Below the pieces are notes generated by a model that was not told the origin of the DNA, did no database searches, and saw only the letters and a program-made list of their open reading frames with translations. This document shows, one piece after another, positions 4,864 to 18,444 of a stretch of DNA of 64,000 bases. The stretch is from NCBI GenBank assembly GCA_002720475.1, contig PBIL01000002.1, positions 154,596-218,595 on the forward strand. The letters are read 5' to 3'. The DNA comes from Roseovarius sp. (GTDB lineage Bacteria; Pseudomonadota; Alphaproteobacteria; Rhodobacterales; Rhodobacteraceae). A program made the position numbers and the translations under genes. Within the stretch, counting starts at the first letter, position 1, and the number at the start of each line of letters is the position of its first letter.

Positions 4864-5526
4864 TCAGCCGCGCCCGCCAAGCCCCTTCGCCATGCGCAGC
4901 AGCTTCTTGCCGGTATGGGTGCCCAGGCGCGAGATCCGCTGCGCCTGAAGCGCGAGCGGGTCCGAGCGCACCCAGTTCACCTGCACCATGCGCCGTTCGC
5001 CGTCGAAGCGCTTGTAGCCGTGATAGCTGTTGTTCGACCGCTTGAAGGCCAGGAGCGTGCCGCCGAGCGGCGTCACCTCGGCCACGTAATCCTCGATATC
5101 GTGCTTGCCGCGCAGCATCCGCAGCTTGCCGCCCTCCTGCGTCCATTCGGGGTTGAAGTAGAGCAGCACGGTCATGATCTTCGACCAGTGGTCGGTGTGG
5201 ATGTTGCCGTCGCTCGGCTCCGAGAGCTTGCGCACGGTGATGGTCTTGGTGGTGCGGCTGAGGTCGATGTCGAACTTGCGCGAGATCAGGCGCTCGAATT
5301 CGGGGCTGTCGAGATCCTCGAGGATCTGCGCGAAGAGCGGGCCGTACTCAAGGCTTTCGGGTCTGAAATTGGCGGGCCGGTCGATATGCGGATAGTCCGC
5401 GTTGACCCGGTCGAGCATGTCGGCCGGGATCACCCCTGTTGCGACCGTGAAGCTGAACGGATCGGTGGTCAGCGGGGCCTTTTCTACGGCGTCGAAGTTG
5501 AGAAGTCTGGTCATCGTGGTTGTCAT
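4864..5526 (-). CDS. 2-oxoglutarate/Fe(II)-dependent oxygenase family protein
   Basis: A 220-aa protein with a double-stranded-beta-helix oxygenase pattern. The iron-binding HxD is HTD at residues 110-112, a distal His occurs in NSYHGYKR near residue 166, and an Arg for 2-oxoglutarate binding lies shortly after (GERRMVQVNWV). The family hydroxylates or desaturates diverse substrates, including amino acids and lipids. It is the last gene of a minus-strand operon after the nucleotidyltransferase (ATGA overlap) and the candidate ceramide synthase. This suggests a tailoring step on the lipid or its headgroup. The substrate cannot be read from sequence. Two possible Met starts (residues 1 and 5) differ trivially. 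Confidence 0.78.
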   Translation of the reverse strand: MTTTMTRLLNFDAVEKAPLTTDPFSFTVATGVIPADMLDRVNADYPHIDRPANFRPESLEYGPLFAQILEDLDSPEFERLISRKFDIDLSRTTKTITVRKLSEPSDGNIHTDHWSKIMTVLLYFNPEWTQEGGKLRMLRGKHDIEDYVAEVTPLGGTLLAFKRSNNSYHGYKRFDGERRMVQVNWVRSDPLALQAQRISRLGTHTGKKLLRMAKGLGGRG

Positions 5527-6386
5527 GTCTGCATCTCTCTAGAGGATGAAGGAAGAGGGGCGGCTTGCGGCGCGCGGGCCGCACTGGCGTAACGCTGGAG
5601 CACAACATAATCATCGACCGAGTCGACATCCACCGAGGCATGGGCATAGGGCAGGACGACCACGCCCACGCGCAGCCCCGCCTTGCGCGACAGAAGCGCG
5701 AGCGCGCGCTCGAGCGTGAGCCAGCCCAGCCGGTAGCGCAGCACCGCCCAGAGCCCGAGCATCCGGATCACCACGCGCGGCTTCTTGCGCTCGCGCTCGA
5801 TCTGCCGCCAGAAATCGGCCATCCGGCGGCCGTCGGCGGTGAGAAAGGCGAAAAGGTTGCAGCCGCAATACTGCCCGTCGGCAAAGCGCAGCACGGTCTT
5901 CTTCAGGTCCGGATAGGCCCCGCGCACCAGATCGTAGGGCGCGAGCCCCACCACCACGTCGCAGCCCGAGCGCGCCGCGTCGCGGCAGAAGTGATCGACG
6001 ATCTCGCTTGTCAGCAGCGGGTGATCGGCGGTGGTGATCATCACCTTGCGGTCTTCGGGAAAACCCGTGAGCATCGCGTAGGCGCTGCTCGACGGGGTGG
6101 GGCCGGGCGCGGTCCAGCTTACCCGCCCTTGCCCGATCATCCCCGAGAGCACGTCCGAGCCCTGGACCACAGCCTCGGCCGGGCCGCTCAGATGCACCGA
6201 GGCCACCGGCGCGGCCCCCTCAAGGGCGGAAATCACCCGCGCGATCATCGGCCGCCCGTCGATCTCGATCAGCGCCTTGCTCGCCACGCCCGCGTGATCG
6301 CGCAGCGCGTCGCGCGCATCGCGCTCTCCGGCAAGGATGACGGCGGCGAAATCGGGGGCTTGGGTATCTGCGGCGGGTCGGGTCAT
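5523..6386 (-). CDS. MobA-like NTP transferase domain protein
   Basis: A 287-aa protein beginning with the nucleotidyltransferase P-loop-like motif AAVILAGERDARD, followed by SKALIEIDGRPMIARV and the metal-binding TTADHPLLT around residue 115. This is the MobA/IspD-type fold that couples a CTP, GTP or similar nucleotide to a phosphorylated acceptor. The first 41 codons of the longer open frame lack similarity, so the start is ATG at 6384-6386. It overlaps the oxygenase start by 4 bp and follows the candidate ceramide synthase by 13 bp. A likely role is activating a headgroup (for example a CDP- or CMP-linked phospho- or phosphonoalcohol) for transfer to ceramide; this is inference. The acceptor is unknown. 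Confidence 0.75.
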   Translation of the reverse strand: MTRPAADTQAPDFAAVILAGERDARDALRDHAGVASKALIEIDGRPMIARVISALEGAAPVASVHLSGPAEAVVQGSDVLSGMIGQGRVSWTAPGPTPSSSAYAMLTGFPEDRKVMITTADHPLLTSEIVDHFCRDAARSGCDVVVGLAPYDLVRGAYPDLKKTVLRFADGQYCGCNLFAFLTADGRRMADFWRQIERERKKPRVVIRMLGLWAVLRYRLGWLTLERALALLSRKAGLRVGVVVLPYAHASVDVDSVDDYVVLQRYASAARAPQAAPLPSSSREMQT

Positions 6387-6399: not shown

Positions 6400-7548
6400 T
6401 CAGAGCGGCTTCTGATAGAGGCGGTAGCGCTTGTGGATCGTGCTGCCGATTTCCTCGATGATGTGGCGCATACCGTCGTTATCCTCCAGAATCCAGCCCA
6501 TCTCGACACGGGTGACGCCGCGCCGGATCATCTGCCTGCGCACCGCGTCGATCACCAGGAAGGCCAGCGTCGGGCCGAGCCGCGAATACTGGTGTTCCTT
6601 GCGCACACCCATCAGCGCCACGCGCGTGCTCTTCGCGCCCCGCACCTTGAGCCGCCACAGCAGCCTGGCCCAGCCGAAGGGGAATAGACGCCCGCGCAGG
6701 TCGTGGATCATCTCGTTGAGGTTCGGGAAGGCCGCGATGAAGGCCACCGCGCGCCCGTCGATCTCGGCGAACTGGATGTAATCGTCCGGCAGAAGCAGGG
6801 TCAGCGCCTTGGCGGTCTCGTCGAACTCTTCCGGCGTGAAGGGCACGAACCCCCAGTTGTCGGACCAGGCATCGTTGAAGATGTCGCGCATGGCGGCGAA
6901 ATCGGCGGCCTTGTCCCTGCGGTTGAAGGGGCGGATGCGCACCTTGCGGCTGGCGCGCTCGGCCAGCTTGGTCATCACCGGCGGGGCCACGAAATCGGGC
7001 TGCACCATGTAGGTCAGCAGATCCTTGACGCCGACATAGCCCTGCGCCTCGATCCGCGGACCGTAATAGCGCGGCGCGTGGCCCATCATGATGAAGGGGG
7101 GGCTGTCGAAATTCTCGACCAGAAGGCCGATCTCCTCGTTGATCGAGAGATTGTAGGGCCCGCGCACCTGCGCGGCACCGCGCGCGCGCAGCCACTCCTC
7201 GGCCGTCCCGAAGAGCGCCGCGAACACGGCGGCGTCATCCACCGCCTCGATCATCCCGAAATAGCCGAGCCTGCCGCCCGCCACCTCGGGCTGCATCCTG
7301 TCCATCTGCGCGGTGATGCGGCCCACCGGTTCGCCCGCGCGCCACGCCACCCATCGGGCCACCTCGCAATGCGCGAAAAGCGGCTTGTTGTGATAGACGC
7401 GCTGTTTCTGCTCGATCAGAAGCGGCGGCACGAAGGCCGGATCCCCGGCATGAATCCGCTCGGGCAGCTTCAGGAACGCGCGTGCCGCGCGGCCCGCATC
7501 TGCCGGGCGGACCTCGATCGGGGCGCTTGCGGGCGCGCTTGGGGTCAT
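6400..7548 (-). CDS. GNAT-superfamily N-acyltransferase, candidate bacterial ceramide synthase (bCerS)
   Basis: A 382-aa protein with a two-part GNAT-like fold. N-terminal landmarks are DPAFVPPLLIEQKQRV, AGEPVGRITAQ and GPYNLSINEEIGLLVENFD, and the C-terminal half carries the SRLGPTLAFLVIDAVRR and RVEMGWILEDN acyl-CoA/ACP-binding-like stretches. Proteins of this look are often mislabelled dATP pyrophosphohydrolase. Caulobacter ceramide synthase bCerS belongs to this GNAT-type class, and spt/acpR/cerR/aasR lie 7 kb away in the same island. The proposed reaction is N-acylation of 3-oxosphinganine. The start ATG at 7548 is chosen because the upstream open frame runs through the divergent acyltransferase gene. 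It heads an operon with the nucleotidyltransferase and oxygenase. Confidence 0.72.
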   Translation of the reverse strand: MTPSAPASAPIEVRPADAGRAARAFLKLPERIHAGDPAFVPPLLIEQKQRVYHNKPLFAHCEVARWVAWRAGEPVGRITAQMDRMQPEVAGGRLGYFGMIEAVDDAAVFAALFGTAEEWLRARGAAQVRGPYNLSINEEIGLLVENFDSPPFIMMGHAPRYYGPRIEAQGYVGVKDLLTYMVQPDFVAPPVMTKLAERASRKVRIRPFNRRDKAADFAAMRDIFNDAWSDNWGFVPFTPEEFDETAKALTLLLPDDYIQFAEIDGRAVAFIAAFPNLNEMIHDLRGRLFPFGWARLLWRLKVRGAKSTRVALMGVRKEHQYSRLGPTLAFLVIDAVRRQMIRRGVTRVEMGWILEDNDGMRHIIEEIGSTIHKRYRLYQKPL

Positions 7549-7791
7549 GCTGTGCCTTTCGATCTGCCGGGCGGGGTCTCGCATCCCGCCCTGCCCTCTT
7601 GCGGGCGCTCTAGCCTTGCCGCATCGGGGCCGGGCAGGGCAAGCCCCCCACGCCGCGCGCGGCGCGAAACCCGTAAGATTGTTACAACCCCGTGCGCCAT
7701 AGGCGGCGATCCCTTGCCACAAAAGGCTTGCGGATCGGGGACCGAACCTTGATGAACCGGAAACCGGATTTTGATCGTGCAGGGGGCCGTC

Positions 7792-8760
7792 TTGGCCAAG
7801 TTCATCCTCGGAAGCCATCTTCGCCACAGGGCGGTCGAAAGCCGGGCCGCCGCCCATGTCCTGTGGTTCGTCGATCTGGCCTTCATCGGCACGGTGAGCG
7901 GTTTTTTCCGGGTGCTGCCGCTGCCCTGGGCCTCGGCCACGGGGGCGCGGTTCGGCCGGTTTCTGGGCCGCATCTTCCGCAACCGCACCCGGCACGTGCG
8001 CGCCAACCTGTCGCTTGCCCTGCCCGGAACCCCGCCCGAGGTGATCGACCGGCTGGCCGAGGAGGTCTGGGGCAACGCGGGCGCGGTCTTTGCCGAATAC
8101 CCCCATCTGGCCAAGTTCACCGACCCGAAGCGCGGCCTTCTGCGCATCGAGACGGTCGAGCCCGACCCGCCCTATTGCCGCCCCGGCACGCCCGTGGTCT
8201 TCGTCGCCGCCCATCTCGCCAACTGGGAAGTGGCCTGCGCCGCGATGACGCAGATGGGCATCCGCTCCTATGCGCTCTATGCGCCGCTGGCCAATCCGTG
8301 GCTGGACAGGCTCATGCTGCGCCACCGCGCCAAGCTCGGCTGCGAGACGGTCTCGCGCGAGGCGGGGCTGCGCGTCTTCCTTCAGGCGCTCAAGAGGGGC
8401 GAGGCCCCGGCGATGATCATCGACCGGCGCGTGGATGGGGGCAAGCCGATCCCGTTCTTCGGCGCGGAAAAGGACAGCTCCACCCTGCCCGCGGGTCTTG
8501 CCCTGCGCTTTGGCGCGCCGCTCGTGCCGGTGCAGGTCGAGCGTCACCCCGGCGCGCGCTTCACCGTGCGCTTTCACGCGCCGCTTGCCCCGCGCAACCC
8601 CGAGGCCGACACGGACGCACAGGCGCTTGACCTCACCCGCCAGATCCACGAGCGGTTCGAGGAGTGGATCACGGCGCGGCCCGGCGAATGGCTCTGCACC
8701 AGCAAAATCTGGCACGGTTCTGTTCTTCGGGCGAAAACCGACGTATATAGACAAGTCTGA
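7792..8760 (+). CDS. LpxL/HtrB-type lysophospholipid acyltransferase family protein (copy 1)
   Basis: A 322-aa inner-membrane acyltransferase of the lipid A lauroyl/myristoyl transferase family. The catalytic HxxxxE is AHLANWE (H141, E146 with this start). Family landmarks ANPWLDRLMLRHR and MIIDRRVDGGKPIPFFG follow, and the C-terminal EWLCTSKIWH is also typical. Start TTG 7792 is preferred over TTG 7771: it has AGGGGG about 5 nt upstream and gives an MAK- start matching copy 2. It lies divergent from the candidate ceramide synthase and upstream of the fatty acid hydroxylase. Acylation of lipid A is the conservative reading; secondary acylation of a sphingolipid is a context-based alternative. 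Confidence 0.85.
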   Translation: MAKFILGSHLRHRAVESRAAAHVLWFVDLAFIGTVSGFFRVLPLPWASATGARFGRFLGRIFRNRTRHVRANLSLALPGTPPEVIDRLAEEVWGNAGAVFAEYPHLAKFTDPKRGLLRIETVEPDPPYCRPGTPVVFVAAHLANWEVACAAMTQMGIRSYALYAPLANPWLDRLMLRHRAKLGCETVSREAGLRVFLQALKRGEAPAMIIDRRVDGGKPIPFFGAEKDSSTLPAGLALRFGAPLVPVQVERHPGARFTVRFHAPLAPRNPEADTDAQALDLTRQIHERFEEWITARPGEWLCTSKIWHGSVLRAKTDVYRQV

Positions 8761-8788
8761 CGACGCGCTCGCATCAAAGAGGCCACAC

Positions 8789-9436
8789 ATGTCCGACCAC
8801 AAACCCAGCCGCCGTCACCGCGTGGACGAGTCGGTCCGGCTCTTCGGGAACCCGCTTCTGGAAAGGCTCAGCCATGTTCACCCGATCGTGCCGCTCCTGG
8901 TCTGGGGGCCGGTCGCGGGCTGGCTGATCTGGCGGGCGGCCGCGGTGCATGGCATCGGCTGGGGCGGGCTCGCGCTGATCGGGCTTGCGGGGCTCGCGAC
9001 CTGGACGCTGGCGGAATACCTGCTGCACCGCTATCTCTTTCATTTCGAGCCGAAGACCGATCTGGGCCGCCGCTTCATCTACCTCTTTCACGGCGTTCAC
9101 CATGACACGCCGCAGGACAAGACGCGGCTCTTGATGCCGCCAGCGGGCGCGCTGCCGATAATCGCGGTACTCTACCTGATCTTCTGGCTGGTCCTGCCCT
9201 ATCCCTGGGCCGAGCCGTTCACGGGCTTCTTCATCGTCGGCTACCTGATCTACGATTACATCCACTACGCCACGCATCACTTTCCGATGCGGCACCCGGC
9301 GCTGCAATTCCTCAAGCATTACCACATGCGTCACCACTTCTCGAACGAGCACGGGCGCTACGGCGTCTCGTCACCCTTCTGGGACTGGGTGTTCGGCACC
9401 TATCCGGAGAAGTCCGAGCGCGCCGCGCGCCGCTGA
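8789..9436 (+). CDS. Fatty acid hydroxylase family protein, fatty-acid-2-hydroxylase-like
   Basis: A 215-aa integral membrane di-iron hydroxylase. Histidine clusters are visible in order as LHRYLFHF, FHGVHHD, HYATHH and HYHMRHHF, with hydrophobic segments between them. The EYLLHRYLFHFEP start and the FHGVHHDTPQDKTRL block resemble eukaryotic FA2H/Scs7, which 2-hydroxylate the N-acyl chain of ceramides; the cytochrome b5 domain of those enzymes is absent. It lies between two LpxL-type acyltransferases and a few genes from the ceramide operon. 2-Hydroxylation of ceramide acyl chains, or of a lipid A acyl chain, is therefore the leading hypothesis. Start ATG 8789 follows the previous stop by 28 bp. 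Confidence 0.85.
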   Translation: MSDHKPSRRHRVDESVRLFGNPLLERLSHVHPIVPLLVWGPVAGWLIWRAAAVHGIGWGGLALIGLAGLATWTLAEYLLHRYLFHFEPKTDLGRRFIYLFHGVHHDTPQDKTRLLMPPAGALPIIAVLYLIFWLVLPYPWAEPFTGFFIVGYLIYDYIHYATHHFPMRHPALQFLKHYHMRHHFSNEHGRYGVSSPFWDWVFGTYPEKSERAARR

Positions 9437-9489
9437 GGCGCCGCGCCCGTGCAAGTTCACCGCGCCACGAGGGGTGCCGGGATGGAGCC

Positions 9490-10437
9490 ATGGCGAAATA
9501 TTACCTGCTGCCCAAGCACCTGATGGACCGCCTGCCGGCGGCACAGACGCCGGTCTGGCTGCTGGAGGCGGCCGTGTTCCATCTGCTCTACGGGCTGGCG
9601 CGGCTCATGCCCCTGCCGCTGGCCACGCGGGTCTTTGCCGCCTGTCTCGGGGTCGTCGGCCGTCGCAATTCCAACAAGCTTCGCCCGGTCCGGCGCAACC
9701 TTGCGGTGATGATGCCCGAGGCGAGCGAGGCGGCGCGCGAGGCCGTGGCGCGCGAGATCTTTCGCTCGGCCGGTCACGCGGCGGTGGAGCTGTTCCTGCT
9801 CGACCGGATATGGCGCAGGCGCGCGCACTATCTCGAATTTGCGATCCACCCGGAGGCCGAAGCGGCGATCCGCCGCAAGGAACCGATCGTCTTTGCCACC
9901 GCCCATGTCGGAGCCTGGCAGCTCACCAATCTCATCGGGCGCGAGCATGACCTGTCCATCGCCGTGCTCTACGCGCCCGACCGCAACCCCTGGATGGACC
10001 GGTTCTTTCGCGCGCGGCGGCGGCATTTCGGCGGCCCGCTGGTGCCGAGCGCGGGCGGCGCGCGCGACGTGATGCGCGAACTGGCCGCCGGGCGCTCGGT
10101 CGGCGCGGCCTTCGACACGCGCATCGACGAGGGCGAGCCGGTGCCGTTCTTCGGCGTGCCCGCCCTGACCAACACGCTGCCCGCGCTGCTGTCGCTGCGC
10201 GGCTATCCGCTCATCCCGATCCGGGCGGTGCGCCTGCCCGGCACGCGCTACCGGATCGAGGTCATGGCCCCGCTCGCCCCCGCCGACCCTGACGCCCCGC
10301 GCAAGGCGCAGGTTCTGGATATCACCACGCGGCTCAATGCCGTGTTCGAGGACTGGATCCGCGAGGATCCGGGCCAGTGGCTGTGCATGAAACGGCGCTG
10401 GCCCAAGCCGCGCCCAGCTCAGGCCGCCGATGTCTGA
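9490..10437 (+). CDS. LpxL/HtrB-type acyltransferase family protein (copy 2) with altered catalytic dyad
   Basis: A 315-aa paralog of the copy at 7792-8760, sharing an MAK- start, the YAPDRNPWMDRFFRARR block, FDTRIDEGEPVPFFGVPALTNT and the QWLCMKRRW C-terminal end. The family motif HxxxxE/D reads HVGAWQ (H139, Q144), so the acidic partner of the catalytic His is Gln. By family knowledge this should lower or abolish classical acyltransfer; alternatively another residue substitutes or the enzyme has a different chemistry. The stop overlaps the start of the next ELM1-family gene by 8 bp, so these two are coupled. It probably acts at the inner membrane in the same lipid pathway as its neighbours. 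Confidence 0.82.
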   Translation: MAKYYLLPKHLMDRLPAAQTPVWLLEAAVFHLLYGLARLMPLPLATRVFAACLGVVGRRNSNKLRPVRRNLAVMMPEASEAAREAVAREIFRSAGHAAVELFLLDRIWRRRAHYLEFAIHPEAEAAIRRKEPIVFATAHVGAWQLTNLIGREHDLSIAVLYAPDRNPWMDRFFRARRRHFGGPLVPSAGGARDVMRELAAGRSVGAAFDTRIDEGEPVPFFGVPALTNTLPALLSLRGYPLIPIRAVRLPGTRYRIEVMAPLAPADPDAPRKAQVLDITTRLNAVFEDWIREDPGQWLCMKRRWPKPRPAQAADV

Positions 10438-11545
10438 GCCGCGCGTCTGGGTGCTCGACGCCTATCGCGCGGGCGAGCGCACGCAGCTGCGCGCGCTGGC
10501 AACGGCGCTTGGCTGGCCCTTCGAGATCAAGCGGCTTTGCTATCGCCGCTTCGGGCAGGCAAGCGCGCTCTTGCTGCGCAACGACCTGAGCGGCATCGAC
10601 CGCGCGGCCTCCGATCCGCTCGTGCCGCCCTGGCCCGATCTGGTCCTCTCCATCGGCATGCGCAACGAGCCGGTGGCGCGCTGGATCCGTGACCGATCGG
10701 GCGGGCGCGCGAAACTGGTCTTTCTCGGGCGGCAATGGGCCGATCCGCGCCATTTCGACCTGGTGATCACCACGCCGCAATACCCGGTGCCCGAACGCGC
10801 CAACGTGCTGCGCAACGCGCTGCCGCTGCACGGGGTGACGCGGGCGCGGCTTGACGCGGCGGCGCAACTCTGGGCACCGCGGCTTGCGCATCTGCGGCGG
10901 CCCTGGCTCGCGGTGAATATCGGCGGCACGAGCGGGCCCTATGCCTTTGGCCGCCACGCCGCCGCGCGTCTTGTGCGCGACACGCTGGCACTGGCGCGGG
11001 CGCGGGGGGCCTCGCTTCTGGTGAGTTCGAGCGCGCGCACACCCGCCTGCGCGCTCGATGCCTTTGCCGCGCAGCGGGAGGTGCCGATGCAGCTCTATCG
11101 CTGGCGGCGCGACGATCCGGACAATCCCTATCTGGGCTTTCTGGCGCTCGCCGACGAGGTGATCGTGACCGCCGACAGCATCTCCATGCTGGCCGAGGCC
11201 CATGCCACGGGCAAGCCGCTCTACATGTTCGACACCGGTGCCGGGCGGTTTTCCATGCGTCACGACATGCACCGCGCGGCAGGCGAGGCACAGGCGGCGC
11301 GGGCGCGGGCCAGAGCCGATGCAGACCGCGCGGATCACGCCGCGGGCGCGCTTGCCTATCGCGCGCTCATGCGCTTGGGCTGGTCCTATCTGAGCCGCGA
11401 CATCAGCCGGCTGCACCTGCGGCTGGTCCGGTCCGGGCGCGCGGTCTGGCTGGGCGATCCGCCGACACCGGGGCCCGAAGCCCCGGACACCGACGACATG
11501 GCCCGCGCCACGGCCGCGATCCGCGCGCTCATCCCGCGCGGCTGA
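10430..11545 (+). CDS. ELM1/GtrOC1-family protein (copy B)
   Basis: A 371-aa paralog of the protein at 2449-3573. Shared blocks include PPWPDLVLSIGMRNEPVARW, LVITTPQYPVPER, NALPLHGVTRARL and EVIVTADSISMLAEAHATGK, in the same order. The glycine-rich NIGGTSGPYAFGR region may form part of a sugar-nucleotide pocket if the GT-B-like fold holds. It overlaps the preceding acyltransferase gene by 8 bp and its end overlaps the convergent ABC transporter by 17 bp. The product is unknown for bacteria; the name reflects a plant homolog and does not imply organelle function. Transfer of a sugar or other group onto a lipid is the context-based guess. Confidence 0.76.
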   Translation: MSEPRVWVLDAYRAGERTQLRALATALGWPFEIKRLCYRRFGQASALLLRNDLSGIDRAASDPLVPPWPDLVLSIGMRNEPVARWIRDRSGGRAKLVFLGRQWADPRHFDLVITTPQYPVPERANVLRNALPLHGVTRARLDAAAQLWAPRLAHLRRPWLAVNIGGTSGPYAFGRHAAARLVRDTLALARARGASLLVSSSARTPACALDAFAAQREVPMQLYRWRRDDPDNPYLGFLALADEVIVTADSISMLAEAHATGKPLYMFDTGAGRFSMRHDMHRAAGEAQAARARARADADRADHAAGALAYRALMRLGWSYLSRDISRLHLRLVRSGRAVWLGDPPTPGPEAPDTDDMARATAAIRALIPRG

Positions 11546-13235
11546 GCCTGCCGCCCACCTCGAGCCGGTGAACCACGTCGGCGGCCTGTGCCATGCCCTC
11601 GTTATGGGTGATGGCAAGGATGGTCAGCTCGTCCCGCAGCGCCTTCAAGGTGGCGATGATCTCGGCCTCGCTCTCGGGGTCGAGCGCGCTGGTCGCCTCG
11701 TCGAGGATCAGCAGGCGCGGCGCGTTGATCAGCGCGCGGGCGATGGCGATGCGCTGGCGCTGCCCGCCCGAGAGCCTGCCGCCGCGCTCGCCCACCAGCG
11801 TCTCCAGCCCCTCGGGCAGCGCGCGCACGAACGCCCACGCCCCGGCCTTTTCCAGCGCCGCACGCGCCTGCGCCTCGGAAATCGCCGGATCGCCCAGCGT
11901 GACATTGTGCAGGACCGTATCGTGCAGAAGCACCGTCTCCTGCGGCACATAGCCCACCATCCGCCGCCAGGCGCGCAGGTCTATGGTCTCGAAGGGGACC
12001 CCGTCGATGCGTATCTCGCCGCTCTCGGGGCGCAGAAGGCCGATGATCAGGTCGATCACCGTGGTCTTGCCCGAGCCCGACGGACCGACGAGCGTGGTGA
12101 TCCGGTGCGCCGGGATCTCGAGATCGAGCCCGCTCAGAACCGAATGCCCCTCATAGGCGAACCGCAGGCCCTCCAGGGTGATGCCCCGCTCCAGCACCGG
12201 CGTGACATGGCCGCCAAGATGTTCCTGCTCGGCCTCGGCGCGCGCGCTCGTGTCCCTGAGCGACCAGAAGGCGCTCTCGGCCTGGGCAAGTTTCTGATAC
12301 TGTTTCTGCACCTTGCCGAGAAAGGCGAAGGTCCGCCCGAGCGCCACCGAGAGGATGAGCACGGTGGCGAATTCCATCTTCAGGACTCCGATGGCCAGAT
12401 AGACGCCGAGCGCGATCAGCATGACGAACATCAGATCCTGCCCTGCGTCGAGCGCCGCCCCCGCCAGAACCTGCTTGCGCAGCGCCTTGTTGAGGCGGTT
12501 GGTCTCGCCCTGAAGCATCCGGTCGGTCAGACCCTCGCGCGCCATCGCCTTGAGCGGCTTGACCGATTGCAGCGTGTCGGTGAGATGCGACATGAGCGAG
12601 ATCATCAGCTCGGTCTGCCGCTTGCCCGCCCGCCGCGTCATCCTGACCAGGAAATGCGACAGCCAGATCACCGCAGCACCCGCCATCAGGCTGACGGCCG
12701 TCGCCTGCCAGGAGACCGCAAGCGCGACGGAACCATAGACGACCGCCTGGATGAGAAAGGTCAGCGCGGTCGCGCCATTGAGATAGGCGTCCGAGGCGCG
12801 CTGCGCCTCGGTGGCCAGCGCATTGGTCAGCCGCCCCGCGGGCTGGTGCAGGAAGAAGCTCCAGCGGCTGCGCATCATGTTGCGCAGCACCTCGAGCCGC
12901 AGATCGGTTGCCACCCGCGCCGCCGTATAGCCCACCTGCCGCTGCGCCGCGAGCAGAAGGACCGCCTTGAGCGTCGCCATCGCCACGATCAGGAGCAGAA
13001 GCGCACCAAGCGTGGCGGGCACCCCGAGCCAGGCCAGCACGTCGAGCACGATCTGCTCGAGCTGTCCGGGCGGCTCGGCCGTCTCTGTCCCCTCGCCCGA
13101 GGCGAGCGCGATATTGAGCATCGGCAGCATCGCCGAGAGGCCCAGCCCCTCGGCCAGCCCCGACAGGAACAGCGCCAGCACCATCAGGAAACTCGGCATC
13201 GGATAGGCGCGGAAGAGGTGGATCATCAGGCGCAT
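11529..13235 (-). CDS. ABC exporter, fused membrane and ATPase domains (MsbA-like lipid flippase candidate)
   Basis: A 568-aa half-transporter. A membrane domain with about six hydrophobic segments occupies residues 10-310. The nucleotide-binding domain shows Walker A GPSGSGKTT, a Q-loop, the signature LSGGQRQRIAIAR, Walker B LLILDEATSALD and a switch His (ITHNEG). The longer open frame adds 17 N-terminal codons with poor similarity, so Met at 13235 is used. As a homodimer it would translocate a hydrophobic or lipid substrate out of the cytoplasmic leaflet. It is the last gene of the minus-strand run from aasR, 72 bp after the phosphoesterase gene. Export of the island's sphingolipid is therefore a reasonable but unproven role. 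Confidence 0.85.
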   Translation of the reverse strand: MRLMIHLFRAYPMPSFLMVLALFLSGLAEGLGLSAMLPMLNIALASGEGTETAEPPGQLEQIVLDVLAWLGVPATLGALLLLIVAMATLKAVLLLAAQRQVGYTAARVATDLRLEVLRNMMRSRWSFFLHQPAGRLTNALATEAQRASDAYLNGATALTFLIQAVVYGSVALAVSWQATAVSLMAGAAVIWLSHFLVRMTRRAGKRQTELMISLMSHLTDTLQSVKPLKAMAREGLTDRMLQGETNRLNKALRKQVLAGAALDAGQDLMFVMLIALGVYLAIGVLKMEFATVLILSVALGRTFAFLGKVQKQYQKLAQAESAFWSLRDTSARAEAEQEHLGGHVTPVLERGITLEGLRFAYEGHSVLSGLDLEIPAHRITTLVGPSGSGKTTVIDLIIGLLRPESGEIRIDGVPFETIDLRAWRRMVGYVPQETVLLHDTVLHNVTLGDPAISEAQARAALEKAGAWAFVRALPEGLETLVGERGGRLSGGQRQRIAIARALINAPRLLILDEATSALDPESEAEIIATLKALRDELTILAITHNEGMAQAADVVHRLEVGGRLSRAG

Positions 13236-13307
13236 GGCTTGGCTCTCCGGTTGGGTGTGCGCTCCTATCGCCCCGGAGCGCGGCAATGTCCACCGCCTGC
13301 CCGGGCG

Positions 13308-14195
13308 TTACGGCTCGGCATGGGCGCGGATGAGGTGATGGGTGGCCGCATGGCCGGTTTCCATGCCGCCGGGCGCGTGTCGCCGGGCGGTGAGCGTGAC
13401 CTGCCAGCCCCCGGCAACGGGGGCGATGTGATAGCGGTGCCAGGCGGCCGCCTCGGGACGGGTGGCCGAGGCCGAGGGCACGCCGATCACCGGGGCCACG
13501 CCGCTTGCCGTTTCCATCTGCTGATGATGGCTGCGATGGCTGTGGCCGTGAAGCACCAGCTCCACCCCCTCCTGCGCCAGCACGGCGCAGAGCGCGGGCG
13601 CGTCCAGAAGCCGCTTGCGCGCCCGCACCGTGCCGCCCAGCGGCGGGTGATGCACCATGACGACACGGCAGAGCCCCTCGGCGCGTGCCCCTGCCAGAAG
13701 CGCCGCCAGCCGGTCAAGCTGTGCCGCCCCCACGGCACCCACGGCGCGGCCCGGGGCAGAGGCCACGGCGCTCGACAGACCGATGAGCGCAAGGCCCCCG
13801 CGCCGCCGGAGCCAGGGAAATCCGCCCCCGTCATCGCCCTGCCAGAAGGGCCGCCACGATTGCGCGCCCGCCTCCCAGGCTCCGCGCACCAGCGCGTCGT
13901 GATTGCCGGGGATCACCATGACGCCTTCCGGCTTGCCCAGCGCATCGAGCCAGCCGCGCGCCTGCGCGTATTCCTGCGGCAGGCCGAGGTTGGTCAGGTC
14001 CCCCGTCACCGCGATCAGGTCCGGTGCCGCCGCGTGAATGTCGGCCACCAGCCGCGCCAGAACCTCGGGCCGATGGATGAGATGGCGCTTGCGCCGCCAT
14101 GACAAGAGGCTGAGCGCGCGCTTGTTCAGCACGGCGCGCCAGTCCACGCGATCAGGCAGCGGCAGATGCACATCCGACAGATGCGCCAGACGCAT
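13308..14195 (-). CDS. Calcineurin-like metallophosphoesterase
   Basis: A 295-aa protein with the full metallophosphoesterase motif set in order: SDVHLP near residue 6, GDLTN, GNHDAL, HHPPLGG and GHSHRSH. These residues bind a dinuclear metal centre. The start at ATG 14195 places DxH at the usual distance from the N terminus; the longer open frame into the spt region is rejected. It lies 41 bp after the spt stop in the ceramide operon and before the ABC exporter, so removing a phosphate from a lipid intermediate or headgroup is plausible. LpxH-type or cyclic-nucleotide hydrolysis cannot be excluded from sequence. Confidence 0.8.
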   Translation of the reverse strand: MRLAHLSDVHLPLPDRVDWRAVLNKRALSLLSWRRKRHLIHRPEVLARLVADIHAAAPDLIAVTGDLTNLGLPQEYAQARGWLDALGKPEGVMVIPGNHDALVRGAWEAGAQSWRPFWQGDDGGGFPWLRRRGGLALIGLSSAVASAPGRAVGAVGAAQLDRLAALLAGARAEGLCRVVMVHHPPLGGTVRARKRLLDAPALCAVLAQEGVELVLHGHSHRSHHQQMETASGVAPVIGVPSASATRPEAAAWHRYHIAPVAGGWQVTLTARRHAPGGMETGHAATHHLIRAHAEP

Positions 14196-14236
14196 GCCGC
14201 GCTCGGGGCTCTCCTCCACCGTGCGTAGCCCCGCCG

Positions 14237-15436
14237 CTACTCCGCGACCGCCGTGGCGGCCCCGGCGCGCACGCTCTCGAAGGCGGCGAGGATCCGGTCG
14301 ATCTGGTCGAACGTGTGCCCCGCGCTCAGGCTGCATCGCAGGAGCGAGGCACCCTCGGGCGCGGCGGGCGGCACCACGAGGTTGACATAGACCCCCTGAT
14401 CGAGCAGCGCGTTCCACATGCGCGCGGCTTCCTCGTGCGAGGGCACCTGCACCGCGATCACCGGGCTTGGCGCGGAGGCAAGCCGGTAGCCGAGCACCTG
14501 GAGCCCGGCATGGAGCCTGCGGGCATTGGCCCAGATCTGCGCCTTGAGCTCGGGGCGCGCGCGCACTGCCCGCAGCGCGGCATGAGCCGCCGCGATGCTC
14601 GCCGGGCTGGGCGAGGCGGTGAAGATATAGGGCCGGCTGCCATAGCGCAGAAGCTGCAATTCCGGGTGGCGGCTCACGCAGAAGCCGCCCAGCGAGGCGA
14701 GGCTCTTGGAAAACGTGCCGGTGATGAAATCCACCTGATCGAGGATCCCCGCCTCCTCGCAGAGGCCCCGCCCCGTCTCGCCATAGACGGCAAAGGAATG
14801 GGCCTCGTCAACCATGAACCAGGCACCGAACTCCTTGGCCACGGCGCACAGATCGGCCAGGGGCGCGGTATCGCCCCACATGCTGTAGAGCCCCTCGGCG
14901 ATCACCAGCGCCCCCTCCGCCGCGCCGCCCAGACGGCGCAGCCGCTTGCGCAGGTCTTCCGCATCGTTGTGCCTGAAGGCGAAGAAATCCGCCCCGCTGA
15001 TGCGGCAGCCGTCATAGATGCAGGCGTGGCTGTGGGCATCCAGAACCACCTTGTCGCCGGGTTGCAAGAGCGCCATGAGCAGGCCCAGATTGGTCTGGTA
15101 GCCGGTGGAAAACACCATCGCCGAGGGCACGCCGTAGAACCGCGCGAATGCTTCCTCGAGCGCGGCATGGCTCGAGAAGCTGCCATTGGCCATGCGCGAG
15201 CCGGTGGTGCCCGAGCCCTCTTCGTGCATCGCGGCGCAGCCCGCCTCGATGATCTCGGGATCGAAGGTCAGGCCGAGATAGTTGTTGGTGCCGACAAGGA
15301 TCGTGGGGCGGCCCGCGATCACCGCCTCGGTGGGCGAAAGGAACCGCTCCATCACGATGCGGCTCGGGTCGGCCTCAAGGCTGCGCAGCCCGTCGCGGAC
15401 CTGCGCCATCTCGGTGAAACGTGCGGTGATGCTCAT
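14237..15436 (-). CDS. spt: Serine palmitoyltransferase (alpha-oxoamine synthase family)
   Basis: A 399-aa fold-type-I PLP enzyme of the alpha-oxoamine synthase family. NNYLGL near residue 51, GSGTTGSRMANGS, the VDEAHSF Asp motif and the PLP lysine in GTFSKSLASLGG are all visible. The family also includes KBL, BioF and HemA, but the position directly after a small ACP gene (ATGA overlap) and next to acyl-ACP synthetase and epimerase genes singles out Spt. The reaction condenses serine with a fatty acyl-ACP to give 3-oxosphinganine, the first committed sphingolipid step. It sits in the operon aasR-cerR-acpR-spt. The product could carry a different amino acid if substrate specificity differs; this cannot be read from the sequence. 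Confidence 0.86.
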   Translation of the reverse strand: MSITARFTEMAQVRDGLRSLEADPSRIVMERFLSPTEAVIAGRPTILVGTNNYLGLTFDPEIIEAGCAAMHEEGSGTTGSRMANGSFSSHAALEEAFARFYGVPSAMVFSTGYQTNLGLLMALLQPGDKVVLDAHSHACIYDGCRISGADFFAFRHNDAEDLRKRLRRLGGAAEGALVIAEGLYSMWGDTAPLADLCAVAKEFGAWFMVDEAHSFAVYGETGRGLCEEAGILDQVDFITGTFSKSLASLGGFCVSRHPELQLLRYGSRPYIFTASPSPASIAAAHAALRAVRARPELKAQIWANARRLHAGLQVLGYRLASAPSPVIAVQVPSHEEAARMWNALLDQGVYVNLVVPPAAPEGASLLRCSLSAGHTFDQIDRILAAFESVRAGAATAVAE

Positions 15437-15690
15437 GCCCGGTCCTCGACAAGTTGTGCGATCTTGGCGGCCAGTTCGCGGATCGTGGTGATGTCGGCCA
15501 TCATGTTGAGCGGCAGGCCGACGTCATAGTGATCCTCGATCTCCACCAGCAATTCCATGAGGTTGACCGAATCGAGGCTCAGATCGTCGGCCAGTTTCGT
15601 GTCGGGGCCAAGGTTTCCGGCGGCCTTGGGGAAGCGCCCCAGAAAGCCGTAAAGCGTCTCGATGATCTCGTCCGGCGTCTCAGATGACAT
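15433..15690 (-). CDS. acpR: Acyl carrier protein dedicated to sphingolipid synthesis
   Basis: An 85-aa acyl carrier protein. The phosphopantetheine attachment serine is in LSLDSVNLMELL (about residue 40), followed by the acidic helix EIEDHYDVGLPL. It differs from housekeeping AcpP, which normally lies beside fabF. Here it is squeezed between cerR (11-bp overlap) and spt (4-bp overlap). In Caulobacter an equivalent ACP (AcpR) carries the acyl chain used by Spt, loaded by AasR. Modification by a holo-ACP synthase encoded elsewhere is required. The short length and DSV motif are within the family norm. Confidence 0.85.
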   Translation of the reverse strand: MSSETPDEIIETLYGFLGRFPKAAGNLGPDTKLADDLSLDSVNLMELLVEIEDHYDVGLPLNMMADITTIRELAAKIAQLVEDRA

Positions 15691-16630
15691 GGCTCTTGCC
15701 TCTCTCGGTTTGCGGCCCCGGCCGGGCCCAGAGCGCCCGCAGCCCCTCGGCCAGCGGGATTTGCGGCACCCAGCCGGTGGCGGCGCTCAGCGCAGTATTG
15801 TCGGCCACCCAGTCGGGGTGGCGCAATTCGCGCAGCTTGCCGGGGCTCAGCATCGGCTGATAGCCGAAAAGCCGCGCGGCGAAAAGATTGGCCGTGGCGA
15901 CAGGGCGCAGGATCGCGCCGGGCAGCGGCACGCGCCAGCCGCGCCCGCGCCCCGCGACGGCCTCGACGATGGTGGCGATCTCCTCCCAGGAATAGCCGCC
16001 CGGATGCCCGTCATCGAGCTCGAACGTGCCGGGCACGGGAGGCGCGACGAGCGCAAGAACGGCCCGCGCCAGATCCTCGACATGCAGAAGCGAGGCGCGC
16101 GCGCCCGTAATCCCGGGCAAGGGCACGATGCCCCGCGCCATGGTCTCGAAGAGCGGCACAAGCTCTCGGTCCCCGGGGCCGTAGAGCGCGGGCGGGCGCA
16201 GGATCGCGTGATCGAGCCCCGAGTCCGCAAGCCGCGCCTCACCCTCCCGCTTGCTCGCGGCGTAAGGCGACAGCTGCGGCTCGCGCGCGGCGAGCGAGGA
16301 AATCAGGATCACGCGCGGCGGCGTGTGCTGTGCGTGCGCCACGCGCGCCACACGCGCCACGCCCTCGGCATTCACGGGCCGGAAATCGCGCGCGTCGCGG
16401 CCCCGCACGACGCCTGCCACATGAATGACGGTGCCCGCCCCCTCGATCAGACGCGCGAGCGCGGCCTCGTCCTCAAGCCCTCCGGTCACGCTCTCAAGCG
16501 CGGGATGGTCGATGGCGAGCGGGCTGCGGTGCACCAGCGCACGCACGCCATGGCCCTCGGACAGGAGCCGCGCGACGATGGCCCGCCCGACGAAGCCCGC
16601 AGCCCCCGTGACCGCGACCAGCCGGGTCAT
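15680..16630 (-). CDS. cerR: NAD-dependent epimerase-family ceramide reductase candidate
   Basis: A 316-aa extended short-chain dehydrogenase. The Rossmann motif VTGAAGFVGRAIV lies at the N terminus and the catalytic YAASK follows around residue 133, with SSLAA just upstream. In Caulobacter the epimerase-like CerR, in the same gene order between the acyl-ACP synthetase and ACP genes, reduces the 3-oxo group of the sphingoid intermediate. That role is transferred here by homology and context. Start ATG 16630 overlaps the aasR stop (ATGA) and the end overlaps acpR. Generic sugar epimerase function is the main alternative, but the operon makes it unlikely. Confidence 0.82.
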   Translation of the reverse strand: MTRLVAVTGAAGFVGRAIVARLLSEGHGVRALVHRSPLAIDHPALESVTGGLEDEAALARLIEGAGTVIHVAGVVRGRDARDFRPVNAEGVARVARVAHAQHTPPRVILISSLAAREPQLSPYAASKREGEARLADSGLDHAILRPPALYGPGDRELVPLFETMARGIVPLPGITGARASLLHVEDLARAVLALVAPPVPGTFELDDGHPGGYSWEEIATIVEAVAGRGRGWRVPLPGAILRPVATANLFAARLFGYQPMLSPGKLRELRHPDWVADNTALSAATGWVPQIPLAEGLRALWARPGPQTERGKSHVI

Positions 16631-18444
16631 GCAATGTAACGGATCGGTGCCTCGTCCACGGTCTCGGGCTGCGAGTCGGCGGGCTTCACGGTGGCGGGCT
16701 GCATCGGCACCGCGGCCGCCGCCTGTTGCCGTGCCAAATGATCCAGCCGCGCACGCGCGCGCGCCAGCTTGCCCGAGGAGGTGCGCGGCAGCGTCCGGGT
16801 CGGCACCAGTTCCACCCGGCAGTCGATACCGAATTCGCTGCGCACCATGCCGATGATGGTCTTGACCAGACGCGCGCGCTTGATCTCGTCGCGCTCGCGG
16901 CACTGCACCACGATCACCGCCTCCTCGTGACGCCCGTCCTCGGACGGGACCGAGAAGGCCGCGACATCGTTGTAGTTCACGCCCGGCTGGCTCTTGGCCA
17001 GATGCTCGAGATCCTGCGGCCAGATGTTGCGGCCGTGAATGATGATCATGTCCTTCTTGCGGCCCGTCAGGAACAGCCGCCCGCCCGCGAGATAGCCGAT
17101 ATCGCCGGTGTTGAGCCAGCGATCGGCGCTCAGCGCCTCGCGCGTCATCTCCTTGTCCTGGAAATAGCCGCTCATCACGCTCGGGCCACGCAGGTGGATG
17201 ACGCCCGCGTGCCGTTCGGGCAGGGCGCGGCCCTGCTCGTCGCGGATCTCGATCTCGAAGCTGGGCAGCAGCGCGCCGCAATCGACATAGCGGGCCACGC
17301 GGCGCTCTGTCCCCTCCGCCTCGGCCGGGTCGAGCGGCCGCGCGATACCGTCGCGCTGCATGGCCTCGGAATCGATATGGTCGATGCCCACCTCTTCCTC
17401 AAGCGGCAGGAAGCTGATCCCGAGCGAACATTCCGCCATGCCGTAGCAGGGCAGGAAGGCGGTCTTGCGGAACCCGGCGGGGGCCAGCACCTCGGCAAAG
17501 CGTTCGAGCGGCTCTGGGCTGATCATCTCGGCACCCACACAGGCCACGCGCAGCGCGCTGAGGTCAAGCCCCTCGGCATCGTGCGGGCGCACACGCATCA
17601 CCGCCAGTTCATAGGCGAAGGGCGGGGCCGAGGTGATCGTGGCGCGGTTCACGGACATCATCTCGAGCCACTTGCGCGGGCGCATGGCGAAATCATGGGT
17701 GCCGAGGAAATCCACCGAACGCTGCGTCGCCATCGGCATGATGATGAAGGCGACAAGCCCCATGTCGTGATAGAAGGGCAGCCAGGAGCTGAACCTGTCG
17801 CCCTCGTGCAGCTTCAGGCCGTTCTCGGCCATGTCGCGGATATTGGCCAGAACCGTCTTCTGGTCGATCACAACGCCGCGCGGAAAGCGCGTGCTGCCCG
17901 AGGTATACTGGATATAGGCGGTGCTCCCGGGCGTCACGCCGGGCAGATCGCCCGCCGCTTCGGGCAGCGCGTCGAAGGTCTCGGGCGTGCCGACAAGGGC
18001 GAGGTCCATGCCCGCCACCGCCTCTTGCAGGAAATCCGCCCATTCCGGCGTCGCCATCGCCGCCGAGGCACCGCAATTGCGGATGAGCTGCGCAAGCTGC
18101 GCCACATAGGCCGCGTGCCCGCCGATCTGGATCGTCGCGGGCAGCGGCACCGGCACGAGGCCGGCATACTGGCAGGCCCAGAAGAAGCGCACGAAATGCG
18201 GCGAGGTCTCGGCCACCAGCGCCACGCGCCCGCCGGGCGCGATGCCAAGGCCGCTCAGACGGCGCGCCAGCGCGATCGCCTCCTCGCGCAACTCGGCATA
18301 GGTCGCGGAGGCGTAGATCTCGCCCCGCGCGCTGAAGAAGTTCACCCCCGTCGTGCCCTGCGCGGCATAGTCGAGCGCCTCGCACAGGGTGGAGAAATCA
18401 GCCTTTCGCAAGGCAAGATCATGCGAACTGCCGGTCGCTTGCAT
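16627..18444 (-). CDS. aasR: Fatty acyl-AMP ligase / acyl-ACP synthetase for sphingolipid synthesis
   Basis: A 605-aa adenylate-forming enzyme of the FAAL/acyl-ACP synthetase type. Visible motifs are the AMP-binding YTSGSTRFPRGVVI around residue 170, the adenylation loop LPCYGMAECSLG, NTGDIGYLAGGRLFLTGRKKD and IIHGRNIWPQDLE near residue 480, and the catalytic-lysine region TSSGKLAR. It would activate a free fatty acid and load it onto the dedicated ACP for Spt. The start at 18444 has AAGGA at a good distance and drops 16 upstream codons. It is the first gene of the operon aasR-cerR-acpR-spt-phosphoesterase-ABC, and 240 bp separate it from the previous gene, so the operon promoter is probably there. 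Confidence 0.85.
   Translation of the reverse strand: MQATGSSHDLALRKADFSTLCEALDYAAQGTTGVNFFSARGEIYASATYAELREEAIALARRLSGLGIAPGGRVALVAETSPHFVRFFWACQYAGLVPVPLPATIQIGGHAAYVAQLAQLIRNCGASAAMATPEWADFLQEAVAGMDLALVGTPETFDALPEAAGDLPGVTPGSTAYIQYTSGSTRFPRGVVIDQKTVLANIRDMAENGLKLHEGDRFSSWLPFYHDMGLVAFIIMPMATQRSVDFLGTHDFAMRPRKWLEMMSVNRATITSAPPFAYELAVMRVRPHDAEGLDLSALRVACVGAEMISPEPLERFAEVLAPAGFRKTAFLPCYGMAECSLGISFLPLEEEVGIDHIDSEAMQRDGIARPLDPAEAEGTERRVARYVDCGALLPSFEIEIRDEQGRALPERHAGVIHLRGPSVMSGYFQDKEMTREALSADRWLNTGDIGYLAGGRLFLTGRKKDMIIIHGRNIWPQDLEHLAKSQPGVNYNDVAAFSVPSEDGRHEEAVIVVQCRERDEIKRARLVKTIIGMVRSEFGIDCRVELVPTRTLPRTSSGKLARARARLDHLARQQAAAAVPMQPATVKPADSQPETVDEAPIRYIA

What the first reader, a model, noticed from the sequence alone, without database searches (positions are those of the whole stretch)
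6400..18444. Bacterial ceramide pathway assembled in one island, in two operons
aasR, cerR, acpR and spt overlap by 4 to 11 bp, the same gene set and order as the Caulobacter ceramide genes. A GNAT-type protein of the class that includes bacterial ceramide synthase lies 7 kb away in a second minus-strand operon. Together they cover fatty acid activation, condensation with serine, N-acylation and reduction. Motifs for Spt (GTFSKS), ACP (LDSVN) and AMP ligase (YTSGST) are directly visible. Sphingolipids are not a standard membrane component in most Rhodobacteraceae.
Basis: partly seen in the sequence, partly recalled or inferred. Interest (0 to 1): 0.8.

Follow-up and report, generated by a model that had tools for sequence, protein, structure and literature searches.

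The report
Sphingolipid island in LPS-less Roseovarius
A marine bacterium carries a large gene island for making ceramide-based (sphingo)lipids, and nearly all relatives with this island lack key genes for lipopolysaccharide, so the island probably builds the substitute outer surface of the cell.

Summary
They are the core of a larger island (about 2449-18444) with an MsbA-like ABC exporter, a phosphoesterase, a nucleotidyltransferase, two lipid-A-type acyltransferases, two ELM1 (GT-B fold) proteins, a sulfotransferase and a homologue of the ceramide hydroxylase Scs7. A lipid-kinase module sits on another contig.

Of 84 held genomes of the genus (Roseovarius), 14 have this Spt type. ELM1 (three matches each), the hydroxylase and a GT8-like protein are found in those same 14 and in none of the other 70. 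LpxC is missing from 13 of the 14 and present in 69 of the other 70. LpxB is missing from the same 13. LptD is found in all 84. In this genome ftsZ and bamD flank a short gap where lpxC normally lies.

Best reading: the island makes an elaborate sphingolipid that replaces LPS. This is inferred; no lipid was measured. One MAG (G080) has both, and the carriers are mostly one clade.

The parts
16627..18444 (-). aasR: fatty acyl-AMP ligase / acyl-AcpR synthetase
   Evidence: NF006624 726.5 bits over cut-off 600; closest solved structure 3pbk, a fatty acyl-adenylate ligase, E 4.4e-156
15680..16630 (-). cerR: NAD-dependent epimerase/HpnA-like reductase
   Evidence: PF01370 over cut-off, TIGR03466-like below cut-off; 4 bp overlap with aasR
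15433..15690 (-). acpR: specialised acyl carrier protein
   Evidence: PF00550 1.2e-11; LSLDSVN motif in the sequence
14237..15436 (-). spt: serine palmitoyltransferase
   Evidence: NF047599 573 bits over cut-off 500; 2x8u/2jg2 alignments
13308..14219 (-). calcineurin-like metallophosphoesterase, downstream of spt
   Evidence: PF00149 1.2e-17; present in 12 of 12 own-type loci, in L041 only in part
11529..13235 (-). MsbA/PglK-like ABC exporter (candidate flippase)
   Evidence: PF00664+PF00005; in 11 of 12 own-type loci, the 12th being a 5.6 kb contig; a relative before aasR in MAGs of Kiloniellales/Rhodospirillales
10430..11545 (+). elm1B: ELM1-family protein, predicted GT-B fold glycosyltransferase
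   Evidence: PF06258 5.5e-59; AF2 pLDDT 89, significant PDB hits are GT-B-type enzymes; only in the 14 island genomes of 84 at 1e-30
9490..10437 (+). lplatB: lipid-A-type acyltransferase
   Evidence: PF03279 1.7e-38; close copies only in the 14 island genomes
8789..9436 (+). Scs7-like ceramide fatty acid hydroxylase
   Evidence: PF04116; only PDB relatives at E<=1 are two Scs7 entries, E 3.9e-29, His motifs aligned; only in the 14 island genomes of 84; a relative lies near spt in 23 of 54 loci of other bacteria
7771..8760 (+). lplatA: lipid-A-type acyltransferase (start uncertain)
   Evidence: PF03279 1.5e-36
6400..7548 (-). cerS: GNAT-type bacterial ceramide synthase candidate
   Evidence: PF00583 3.8e-5; a relative lies near spt in 41 of 54 loci of other bacteria
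5523..6386 (-). NTP transferase (CC_1153-like by family and position)
   Evidence: PF12804 5.6e-16; next to cerS also in Hyphomonas and Kiloniellales loci
4864..5526 (-). 2OG-Fe(II) oxygenase, 4 bp overlap with the NTP transferase
   Evidence: PF13640 9.6e-10; in 5 of the 10 own-type loci that reach cerS
3674..4603 (+). sulfotransferase
   Evidence: PF00685 3.4e-20; a match in the flank of 7 of the 10 own-type loci that reach cerS, in part at contig or stretch ends
2449..3687 (-). elm1A: second ELM1-family protein (start probably near 3576)
   Evidence: PF06258 3.1e-59

Best explanation
The island makes ceramide by the Caulobacter route: AasR loads a fatty acid on AcpR, Spt condenses it with serine, and bCerS and CerR acylate and reduce the product. 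Next, an Scs7-like enzyme probably hydroxylates the N-acyl chain. A ceramide-kinase-like enzyme plus a CC_1161-like protein (second module, contig C9) and the NTP transferase build a phospho head group. ELM1 (GT-B) and GT8-like proteins, LpxL-type acyltransferases and sulfotransferases decorate it. The MsbA-like transporter flips the lipid, and the retained Lpt machinery (LptF, LptG, LptD) carries it to the outer leaflet of the outer membrane, where it stands in for LPS, whose synthesis this lineage has lost. Shown here: gene content, co-occurrence, absence of LpxC and LpxB, retention of Lpt genes. Inferred: the reactions, their order, and the export route.
For: Core enzymes. Island conserved from NTP transferase to aasR in all 10 own-type loci with enough flank (L035-L038, L040, L042-L046; hydroxylase, the rest); 2 further loci (L039, L041) are too short. 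Over 84 genus genomes: own-type Spt in 14; ELM1, hydroxylase and GT8-like protein in the same 14 and 0 of 70 others; CC_1161-like protein in those 14 plus exactly the six with the other Spt type, 0 of 64. LpxC absent in 13 of 14 and present in 69 of 70 others. LpxB absent in the same 13 of 14; of 70 others absent in G063 and only below cut-off in G072. Housekeeping LpxL-like acyltransferase not seen at 1e-15 in 13 of 14, seen in 66 of 70. lpxC gone from between ftsZ and bamD in 9 island genomes, own included. LptD in 84 of 84; LptF/LptG in 83 of 84. Hydroxylase closest to Scs7. ELM1 model has a GT-B fold. Precedent: Sphingomonas naturally lacks lipid A and makes sphingolipids, and a sphingolipid is needed when Caulobacter grows without lipid A (PMC10964400, whole text).
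Against: No lipid data. G080, a 95% complete MAG, holds the island and also LpxC, LpxB and LpxL-like genes. Its lptFG groups with the sp. 217/mucosus rows (100/99) and its ftsZ lies near them in an unresolved fork, but its island groups with R. tolerans, so it is a mosaic bin, a case of transfer, or a real genome with both. In the lptFG tree the 13 island rows form one clade, so the 14 genomes are not 14 independent events and the Fisher value 3e-13 overstates the case. G018 falls outside the others, weakly, in the ftsZ tree and has no LptF/LptG match (86% complete). The own genome is 74% complete, although its ftsZ locus is intact. For four island genomes (G041, G069, G024, G019) the fetched stretch after ftsZ holds no bamD or ends. 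No ortholog of CC_1159 or CC_1152 was seen in the stretches read. LptD and LptFG might be kept for another reason or because the loss is recent. Relatives of the hydroxylase also accompany spt in 23 of 54 loci of other bacteria, so that part alone is not special to LPS-less strains.
Confidence: 0.72

Rival explanations
1. One reading: an ordinary Caulobacter-type ceramide / ceramide-phosphoglycerate pathway that adds a lipid to a normal LPS outer membrane.
For: Core genes and the order aasR-cerR-acpR-spt match the printed Caulobacter order; the kinase and CC_1161-like pair exists in this genome; six other genus members have the other Spt type, four LptF/G matches and LpxC; G080 has island and LpxC.
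Against: LpxC and LpxB are missing in 13 of 14 carriers of this island and lpxC is gone from an intact locus in this genome. No second LptF/G pair here. ELM1, LPLAT and sulfotransferase genes have no Caulobacter counterpart named in the sections read.
Confidence: 0.12
2. Island and LPS loss are two unconnected marks of one clade; some other lipid fills the outer leaflet.
For: The carriers form one clade in the lptFG tree, so coincidence on one branch cannot be excluded by counting; G080 keeps LPS genes together with the island.
Against: The functional link has precedents in Sphingomonas and in Caulobacter without lipid A. The island itself carries lipid-A-pathway-like parts (LpxL-type acyltransferases, an MsbA-like exporter), and Lpt genes are retained.
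Confidence: 0.1
3. The LPLAT, ELM1 and ABC genes form an alternative lipid A route with non-homologous replacements for LpxC and LpxB, so LPS is still made.
For: LpxL-type acyltransferases and GT-B proteins resemble lipid A enzymes; LptD is retained.
Against: These genes lie inside the ceramide island and co-occur with its Spt, and no deacetylase domain was seen among the island genes scanned. LpxA, LpxD, LpxK and WaaA were not searched.
Confidence: 0.05

Closest known systems
Caulobacter crescentus ceramide / CPG2 locus CC_1168-CC_1152 (PMC11324152, sections 4, 8 part 1, 9, 13 and passages)
   Same: aasR-cerR-acpR-spt order, cerS in a separate operon with a CofC/NTP-transferase-like gene; a ceramide-kinase-like and a CC_1161-like gene in the genome
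   Different: No second LptF/G pair; no CC_1159/CC_1152-like gene seen in the stretches read; extra ELM1, LPLAT, ABC, sulfotransferase and GT8-like genes; LpxC and LpxB missing. Caulobacter sequences themselves were not compared.
LPS-free, sphingolipid-based outer membrane of Sphingomonas (PMC10964400)
   Same: Sphingolipid genes together with natural absence of lipid A
   Different: Different order (Rhodobacterales); genes in one or two islands, whereas S. wittichii and Z. mobilis genes are scattered (PMC11324152 section 9); ELM1/LPLAT/sulfotransferase decoration set
Scs7 ceramide very-long-chain fatty acid hydroxylase (yeast, by recall)
   Same: Sequence similarity E 3.9e-29 over 202 residues with the His motifs aligned
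   Different: Bacterial, 215 aa, without the N-terminal cytochrome b5 domain that I recall for Scs7; in Caulobacter a DesA-type enzyme is credited with acyl hydroxylation (PMC11324152 section 9)
Kiloniellales/Rhodospirillales sphingolipid clusters (MAG loci L064, L093)
   Same: ABC, aasR, cerR, acpR, spt, CC_1161-like, kinase, FA_hydroxylase, cerS and NTP transferase together
   Different: L064 has an LptF/LptG pair in the cluster; no ELM1, LPLAT or sulfotransferase hits at 1e-6 in the stretches; LPS status not tested

Membership tests
Caulobacter-type (rhodobacterial) ceramide synthesis genes | spt of the Spt family, not BioF/KBL/ALAS | tested here: met
   NF047599 over cut-off, BioF/KBL/ALAS models under theirs; closest solved structures are Spt
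Caulobacter-type (rhodobacterial) ceramide synthesis genes | acpR directly before spt, aasR and cerR in the same operon | tested here: met
   Coordinates and overlaps; conserved in the 12 own-type loci
Caulobacter-type (rhodobacterial) ceramide synthesis genes | GNAT-type bCerS in a separate transcription unit | tested here: met
   6400-7548, weak but over-cut-off GNAT match; a relative near spt in 41 of 54 other loci. Not compared with the Caulobacter bCerS sequence
Caulobacter-type (rhodobacterial) ceramide synthesis genes | Ceramide is actually made | not testable with these tools
   Needs lipid extracts
Caulobacter CPG2 phosphosphingolipid pathway | Ceramide kinase (CC_1160) and CC_1161 orthologs | tested here: inconclusive
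   DAGK_cat protein and adjacent CC_1161-like protein on contig C9; same pair beside spt in Hyphomonas loci; Caulobacter proteins not at hand
Caulobacter CPG2 phosphosphingolipid pathway | LptF2/LptG2 second copies | tested here: not met
   Two LptF/G matches in this genome; four in each of the six genomes with the other Spt type. The genome is 74% complete
Caulobacter CPG2 phosphosphingolipid pathway | CC_1152 (LicD-like) and CC_1159 (CDP-alcohol transferase) orthologs | tested here: inconclusive
   No such Pfam domain among the genes scanned in the island and L106; a CDP-OH_P_transf gene does lie in the Hyphomonas cluster L086; whole genome not searched for them
LPS-free sphingolipid outer membrane (Sphingomonas kind) | Lipid A synthesis genes absent | tested here: met
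   No LpxC or LpxB match in this genome; ftsZ-bamD junction without lpxC on contig C6. LpxA, LpxD, LpxK not searched
LPS-free sphingolipid outer membrane (Sphingomonas kind) | Glycosphingolipid in the outer leaflet | not testable with these tools
   Needs lipid and membrane analysis

The most novel reading that the evidence does not exclude
A lineage of Roseovarius, including culture-collection strains, has replaced LPS by a new class of sphingolipid, assembled on ceramide by enzymes of lipid-A type (LpxL-like O-acylation, GT-B glycosylation, MsbA-like flipping), hydroxylated by a bacterial Scs7 homologue and sulfated, and delivered by the old LPS transporter. If G080 is a true genome, the island came first and LPS was lost afterwards, more than once.
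Probability: 0.5. Interest if true: 0.9.

Novelty: new variant of a known kind. Interest (0 to 1): 0.8.

Why it matters
Why lipid A is essential in most diderm bacteria, and what allows its loss, is an open question (PMC10964400). Here is a natural comparison within one genus: strains with the island and no LpxC/LpxB, strains with another sphingolipid cluster that keep LpxC, and strains with neither. Named isolates by their record titles (R. mucosus DSM 17069, R. tolerans DSM 11457, Roseovarius sp. 217, R. autotrophicus SHN287) make it directly testable. It also ties several orphan families to sphingolipid decoration (bacterial ELM1 proteins, a GT8-like family and the CC_1161-like family, the last two without a Pfam match) and points to the Lpt system as carrier of a sphingolipid. 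A 2020 survey of alphaproteobacterial type strains describes sphingolipids as apparently restricted to Sphingomonadales (PMC7179689, passages).

Tried and rejected
Spt as ALAS/KBL/BioF: rejected by the curated cut-offs. A betaproteobacterial origin read from the model name NF047599 'BetaP': not supported, because the Spt of the other, L076-type cluster also scores highest on it; only identities hint at it (57-58% to Sulfuritalea and Methylotenera, 48-55% to the alphaproteobacterial loci). Spt on plasmids as the source of the island: 23 plasmid records, all below 60% identity. Missing LpxC as a result of poor MAGs: rejected, because 10 of the 11 island genomes that are at least 90% complete lack it and the ftsZ-bamD junction is intact in 9 island genomes. 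G080 as plain contamination: not settled. Remnants of lpxC: a loose search gave no hit better than E 2.3 in island loci. Against the nine gaps alone, a 13-residue match to the LpxC C-terminal part in the R. tolerans gap came up with 4 of 7 queries (best E 0.009), and single short matches in G037 (E 0.003) and G018 (E 0.014); these may be traces or chance. The GT8-like protein (L106:6900-7850) gave a weak model (pLDDT 60) and no fold hit at E<=0.001; the GT8 label rests on weak top hits and an IDPDVF motif that I take as a DxD motif from memory. No whole-genome tree was made.

An error of mine: the hydroxylase query was in the wrong frame. Its columns there are not used. One search repeats the comparison in the right frame (10 of 10 own-type loci with flank, 23 of 54 others at E<=1e-4), and one search confirms PF04116 in L064, L093 and L062. 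The genus search used the right frame.

Papers: PMC11324152 (outline, sections 4, 8 part 1 of 2, 9, 13 and passages), PMC11334938 (outline, section 20), PMC9386255, PMC11087976 and PMC7179689 (passages), PMC10964400 (whole text). Searches behind 'not found in print': Roseovarius + sphingolipid, 4 papers, none on topic by title and abstract; 11; 39, of which 25 listed; 11, 10 listed; Roseovarius + lpxC, 0; 130, 20 listed; 0; 19, 15 listed. Most subscription papers are not held, so this is weak evidence.
Full report
Observation. The four genes aasR (16627-18444), cerR (15680-16630), acpR (15433-15690) and spt (14237-15436) lie on the minus strand with overlaps of 4, 11 and 4 bp. Spt scores 572.9 bits on NF047599 (cut-off 500), while BioF, KBL and ALAS models remain below their cut-offs; AasR scores 726.5 on NF006624 (cut-off 600). 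Spt's nearest solved relatives are named serine palmitoyltransferases, with the GTFSKS lysine and DEAH motifs aligned. AasR's nearest is the fatty acyl-adenylate ligase 3pbk. The GNAT gene is 6400-7548.

What else is in the island. Downstream of spt, in the same direction, are a calcineurin-like phosphoesterase (13308-14219) and an MsbA/PglK-like ABC exporter (11529-13235). Between the two minus-strand operons lies a plus-strand operon: lipid-A-type acyltransferase (7771-8760), fatty acid hydroxylase (8789-9436), a second lipid-A-type acyltransferase (9490-10437) and an ELM1-family protein (10430-11545). After cerS come an NTP transferase (5523-6386) and a 2OG-Fe(II) oxygenase (4864-5526), then a sulfotransferase (3674-4603) and a second ELM1 protein (2449-3687). 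The only PDB relatives of the hydroxylase at E<=1 are two Scs7 ceramide hydroxylase entries (E 3.9e-29; His motifs aligned). The ELM1 model (pLDDT 89) matches GT-B-type enzymes such as MurG, WaaG, heptosyltransferase II and UDP-GlcNAc 2-epimerase, 47 chains at E<=0.001.

Source. The window lies in a 2.68 Mb, 74% complete genome. In the scan of genome contigs, 66 loci were confirmed; Spt of at least 79% identity came from 12 of them, with titles naming Roseovarius in 10 and only Alphaproteobacteria or Rhodobacteraceae in 2; the next best was 58%. G handles were matched to names by coordinates: G024 R. mucosus DSM 17069, G036 Roseovarius sp. 217, G053 R. tolerans DSM 11457, G038 R. autotrophicus SHN287, G080 MAG Biocath_Alpha_21.

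Conservation. Of the 12 own-type loci, 10 hold enough flank and all 10 contain the full run from NTP transferase to aasR (hydroxylase, 81-93% identity); the other two contigs (L039, L041) are cut. In four relatives read (G036, G041, G053, G038) a second module continues the island: GT8-like protein, CC_1161-like protein, DAGK-type lipid kinase and third ELM1, with a sulfotransferase next to it in G036, G041 and G053; in G070 it lies about 12 kb beyond aasR behind housekeeping genes. In this genome the module is on another contig (C9, locus L106). Among 54 spt loci of other bacteria, at 1e-6, the CC_1161-like protein is near spt in 14, the kinase in 12 and the ABC exporter in 6, one of these (L076) only a partial match. 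The hydroxylase is near spt in 23 of the 54 at 1e-4. In the Kiloniellales and Rhodospirillales MAGs L064 and L093 it lies directly before cerS. The hydroxylase is thus a recurrent companion of bacterial spt and not special to this island.

Co-occurrence in the genus (84 genomes). Own-type Spt: 14 genomes; a second, about 50% identical Spt: 6 genomes. ELM1 at E<=1e-30: the same 14, three matches in each, 0 of 70 others. Hydroxylase at E<=1e-20: the same 14. GT8-like protein at E<=1e-15: the same 14. CC_1161-like at E<=1e-10: 20 genomes, namely all 20 Spt carriers and no other.

Loss of LPS. LpxC (PF03331) is found in 70 of 84: 69 of the 70 island-free genomes (G044, 81% complete, lacks it) and 1 of 14 island genomes (G080). 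Among genomes at least 90% complete and at most 5% contaminated, 62 of 72 have it; the ten without are island genomes. LpxB (PF02684) is absent in the same 13 of 14; among the others only G063 lacks it and G072 has only a match below cut-off. With lplatB as query at 1e-15, 66 of 70 island-free genomes show a housekeeping acyltransferase, while 13 of 14 island genomes show only the two island copies. The order ftsZ-lpxC-bamD-recN is seen in the six control genomes (recN in two pieces in G054) and in G080. In G000, G055, G036, G038, G053, G070, G005, G018 and G037 ftsZ is followed by bamD with no lpxC; in G041, G069, G024 and G019 no bamD follows in the stretch fetched, three of which reach a contig end. 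No lpxC similarity better than E 2.3 was found in these loci; a 13-residue match in the R. tolerans gap may be a trace. The own scar is on contig C6, about 54 kb from the window. LptD is in 84 of 84 genomes. LptF/LptG are in 83 of 84 (none in G018), with four copies in exactly the six genomes that carry the other Spt.

Caveats. An lptFG tree of 38 rows puts its 13 island rows in one clade (100/100); G018 was not included because it had no LptFG match. An ftsZ tree of 20 rows puts 13 of 14 island rows together and G018 weakly apart. The correlation therefore rests on few independent events, and the Fisher value (3e-13) is only descriptive. In G080, lptFG falls with the sp. 217/mucosus rows and ftsZ (next to its lpxC) lies near them in an unresolved fork, but its island falls with R. 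tolerans (100/100). It may be a mosaic bin, a transfer, or a true genome with both systems; in the last case the island preceded the loss of LPS.

Mechanism proposed. Ceramide synthesis as in Caulobacter (order of the last two steps disputed in the literature; PMC11324152 section 4, PMC11087976 passages); acyl hydroxylation by the Scs7-like enzyme; phosphorylation by the kinase; further head-group steps by the CC_1161-like protein, NTP transferase and phosphoesterase; O-acylation, glycosylation and sulfation by LPLATs, ELM1/GT8-like proteins and sulfotransferases; flipping by the ABC exporter; and transport by the retained Lpt machinery. Only gene content, co-occurrence and gene absence are shown. 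Substrates and order are inferred.

Known context. Sphingomonas naturally lacks lipid A and makes sphingolipids, and a sphingolipid is needed for Caulobacter to grow without lipid A (PMC10964400, whole text). The Caulobacter phosphosphingolipid locus has second LptC/F/G copies and six decoration genes (PMC11324152). The present island differs in its decoration set, in lacking a second LptF/G pair and in the loss of LpxC and LpxB. The searches listed under Tried and rejected found no paper on sphingolipids or loss of LPS in Roseovarius, within an open-access library only.

Verdict. A real, largely overlooked island: the ceramide core is a known kind. Its coupling to natural LPS loss in a Rhodobacterales genus, with a new decoration set, is a new variant that can be tested on cultured strains.

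Noticed in passing
L076 and G001, G008, G020, G039, G049, G054: Six other genus members carry a second, about 50% identical Spt, four LptF/LptG matches and LpxC; the one cluster read (L076) has a DAGK kinase, LptF/LptG genes and a Polysacc_synt gene, like Hyphomonas.
   Followed up: partly
L064:15860-17792: FA_hydroxylase and cerS overlap by 14 bp (by my gene caller) in a Kiloniellales MAG, with an ABC exporter before aasR: independent support for hydroxylase and exporter as sphingolipid genes.
   Followed up: partly
L055-L100 (Parvularculaceae and others): A fatty acid hydroxylase relative lies within about 4 kb of spt in many of these loci, mostly upstream of aasR on the other strand.
   Followed up: partly
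plasmid records: spt, mostly with a neighbouring acyl carrier protein, lies on plasmid records of Roseomonas, Pseudomonas, Rahnella, Klebsiella and others; ceramide synthesis may move between bacteria.
   Followed up: no
L102:9346-13107: In Roseovarius sp. 217 the far end of the island adds another sulfotransferase, an acyltransferase-3/SGNH protein and a methyltransferase-like gene.
   Followed up: no
window 193-2474: Phosphonoacetaldehyde hydrolase (TIGR01422 over cut-off) next to a PehA-like sulfatase/phosphodiesterase (below cut-off); not seen beside the island in the own-type loci.
   Followed up: no
G032 and G054, LpxB matches: LpxB appears as two adjacent pieces in different frames in two near-complete genomes of the genus; one of them (G054) carries the other Spt type.
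   Followed up: no
G080 (L043, L147-L149, L188): The only genome with both the island and lpxC/lpxB; its island and housekeeping genes give different neighbours in trees.
   Followed up: partly
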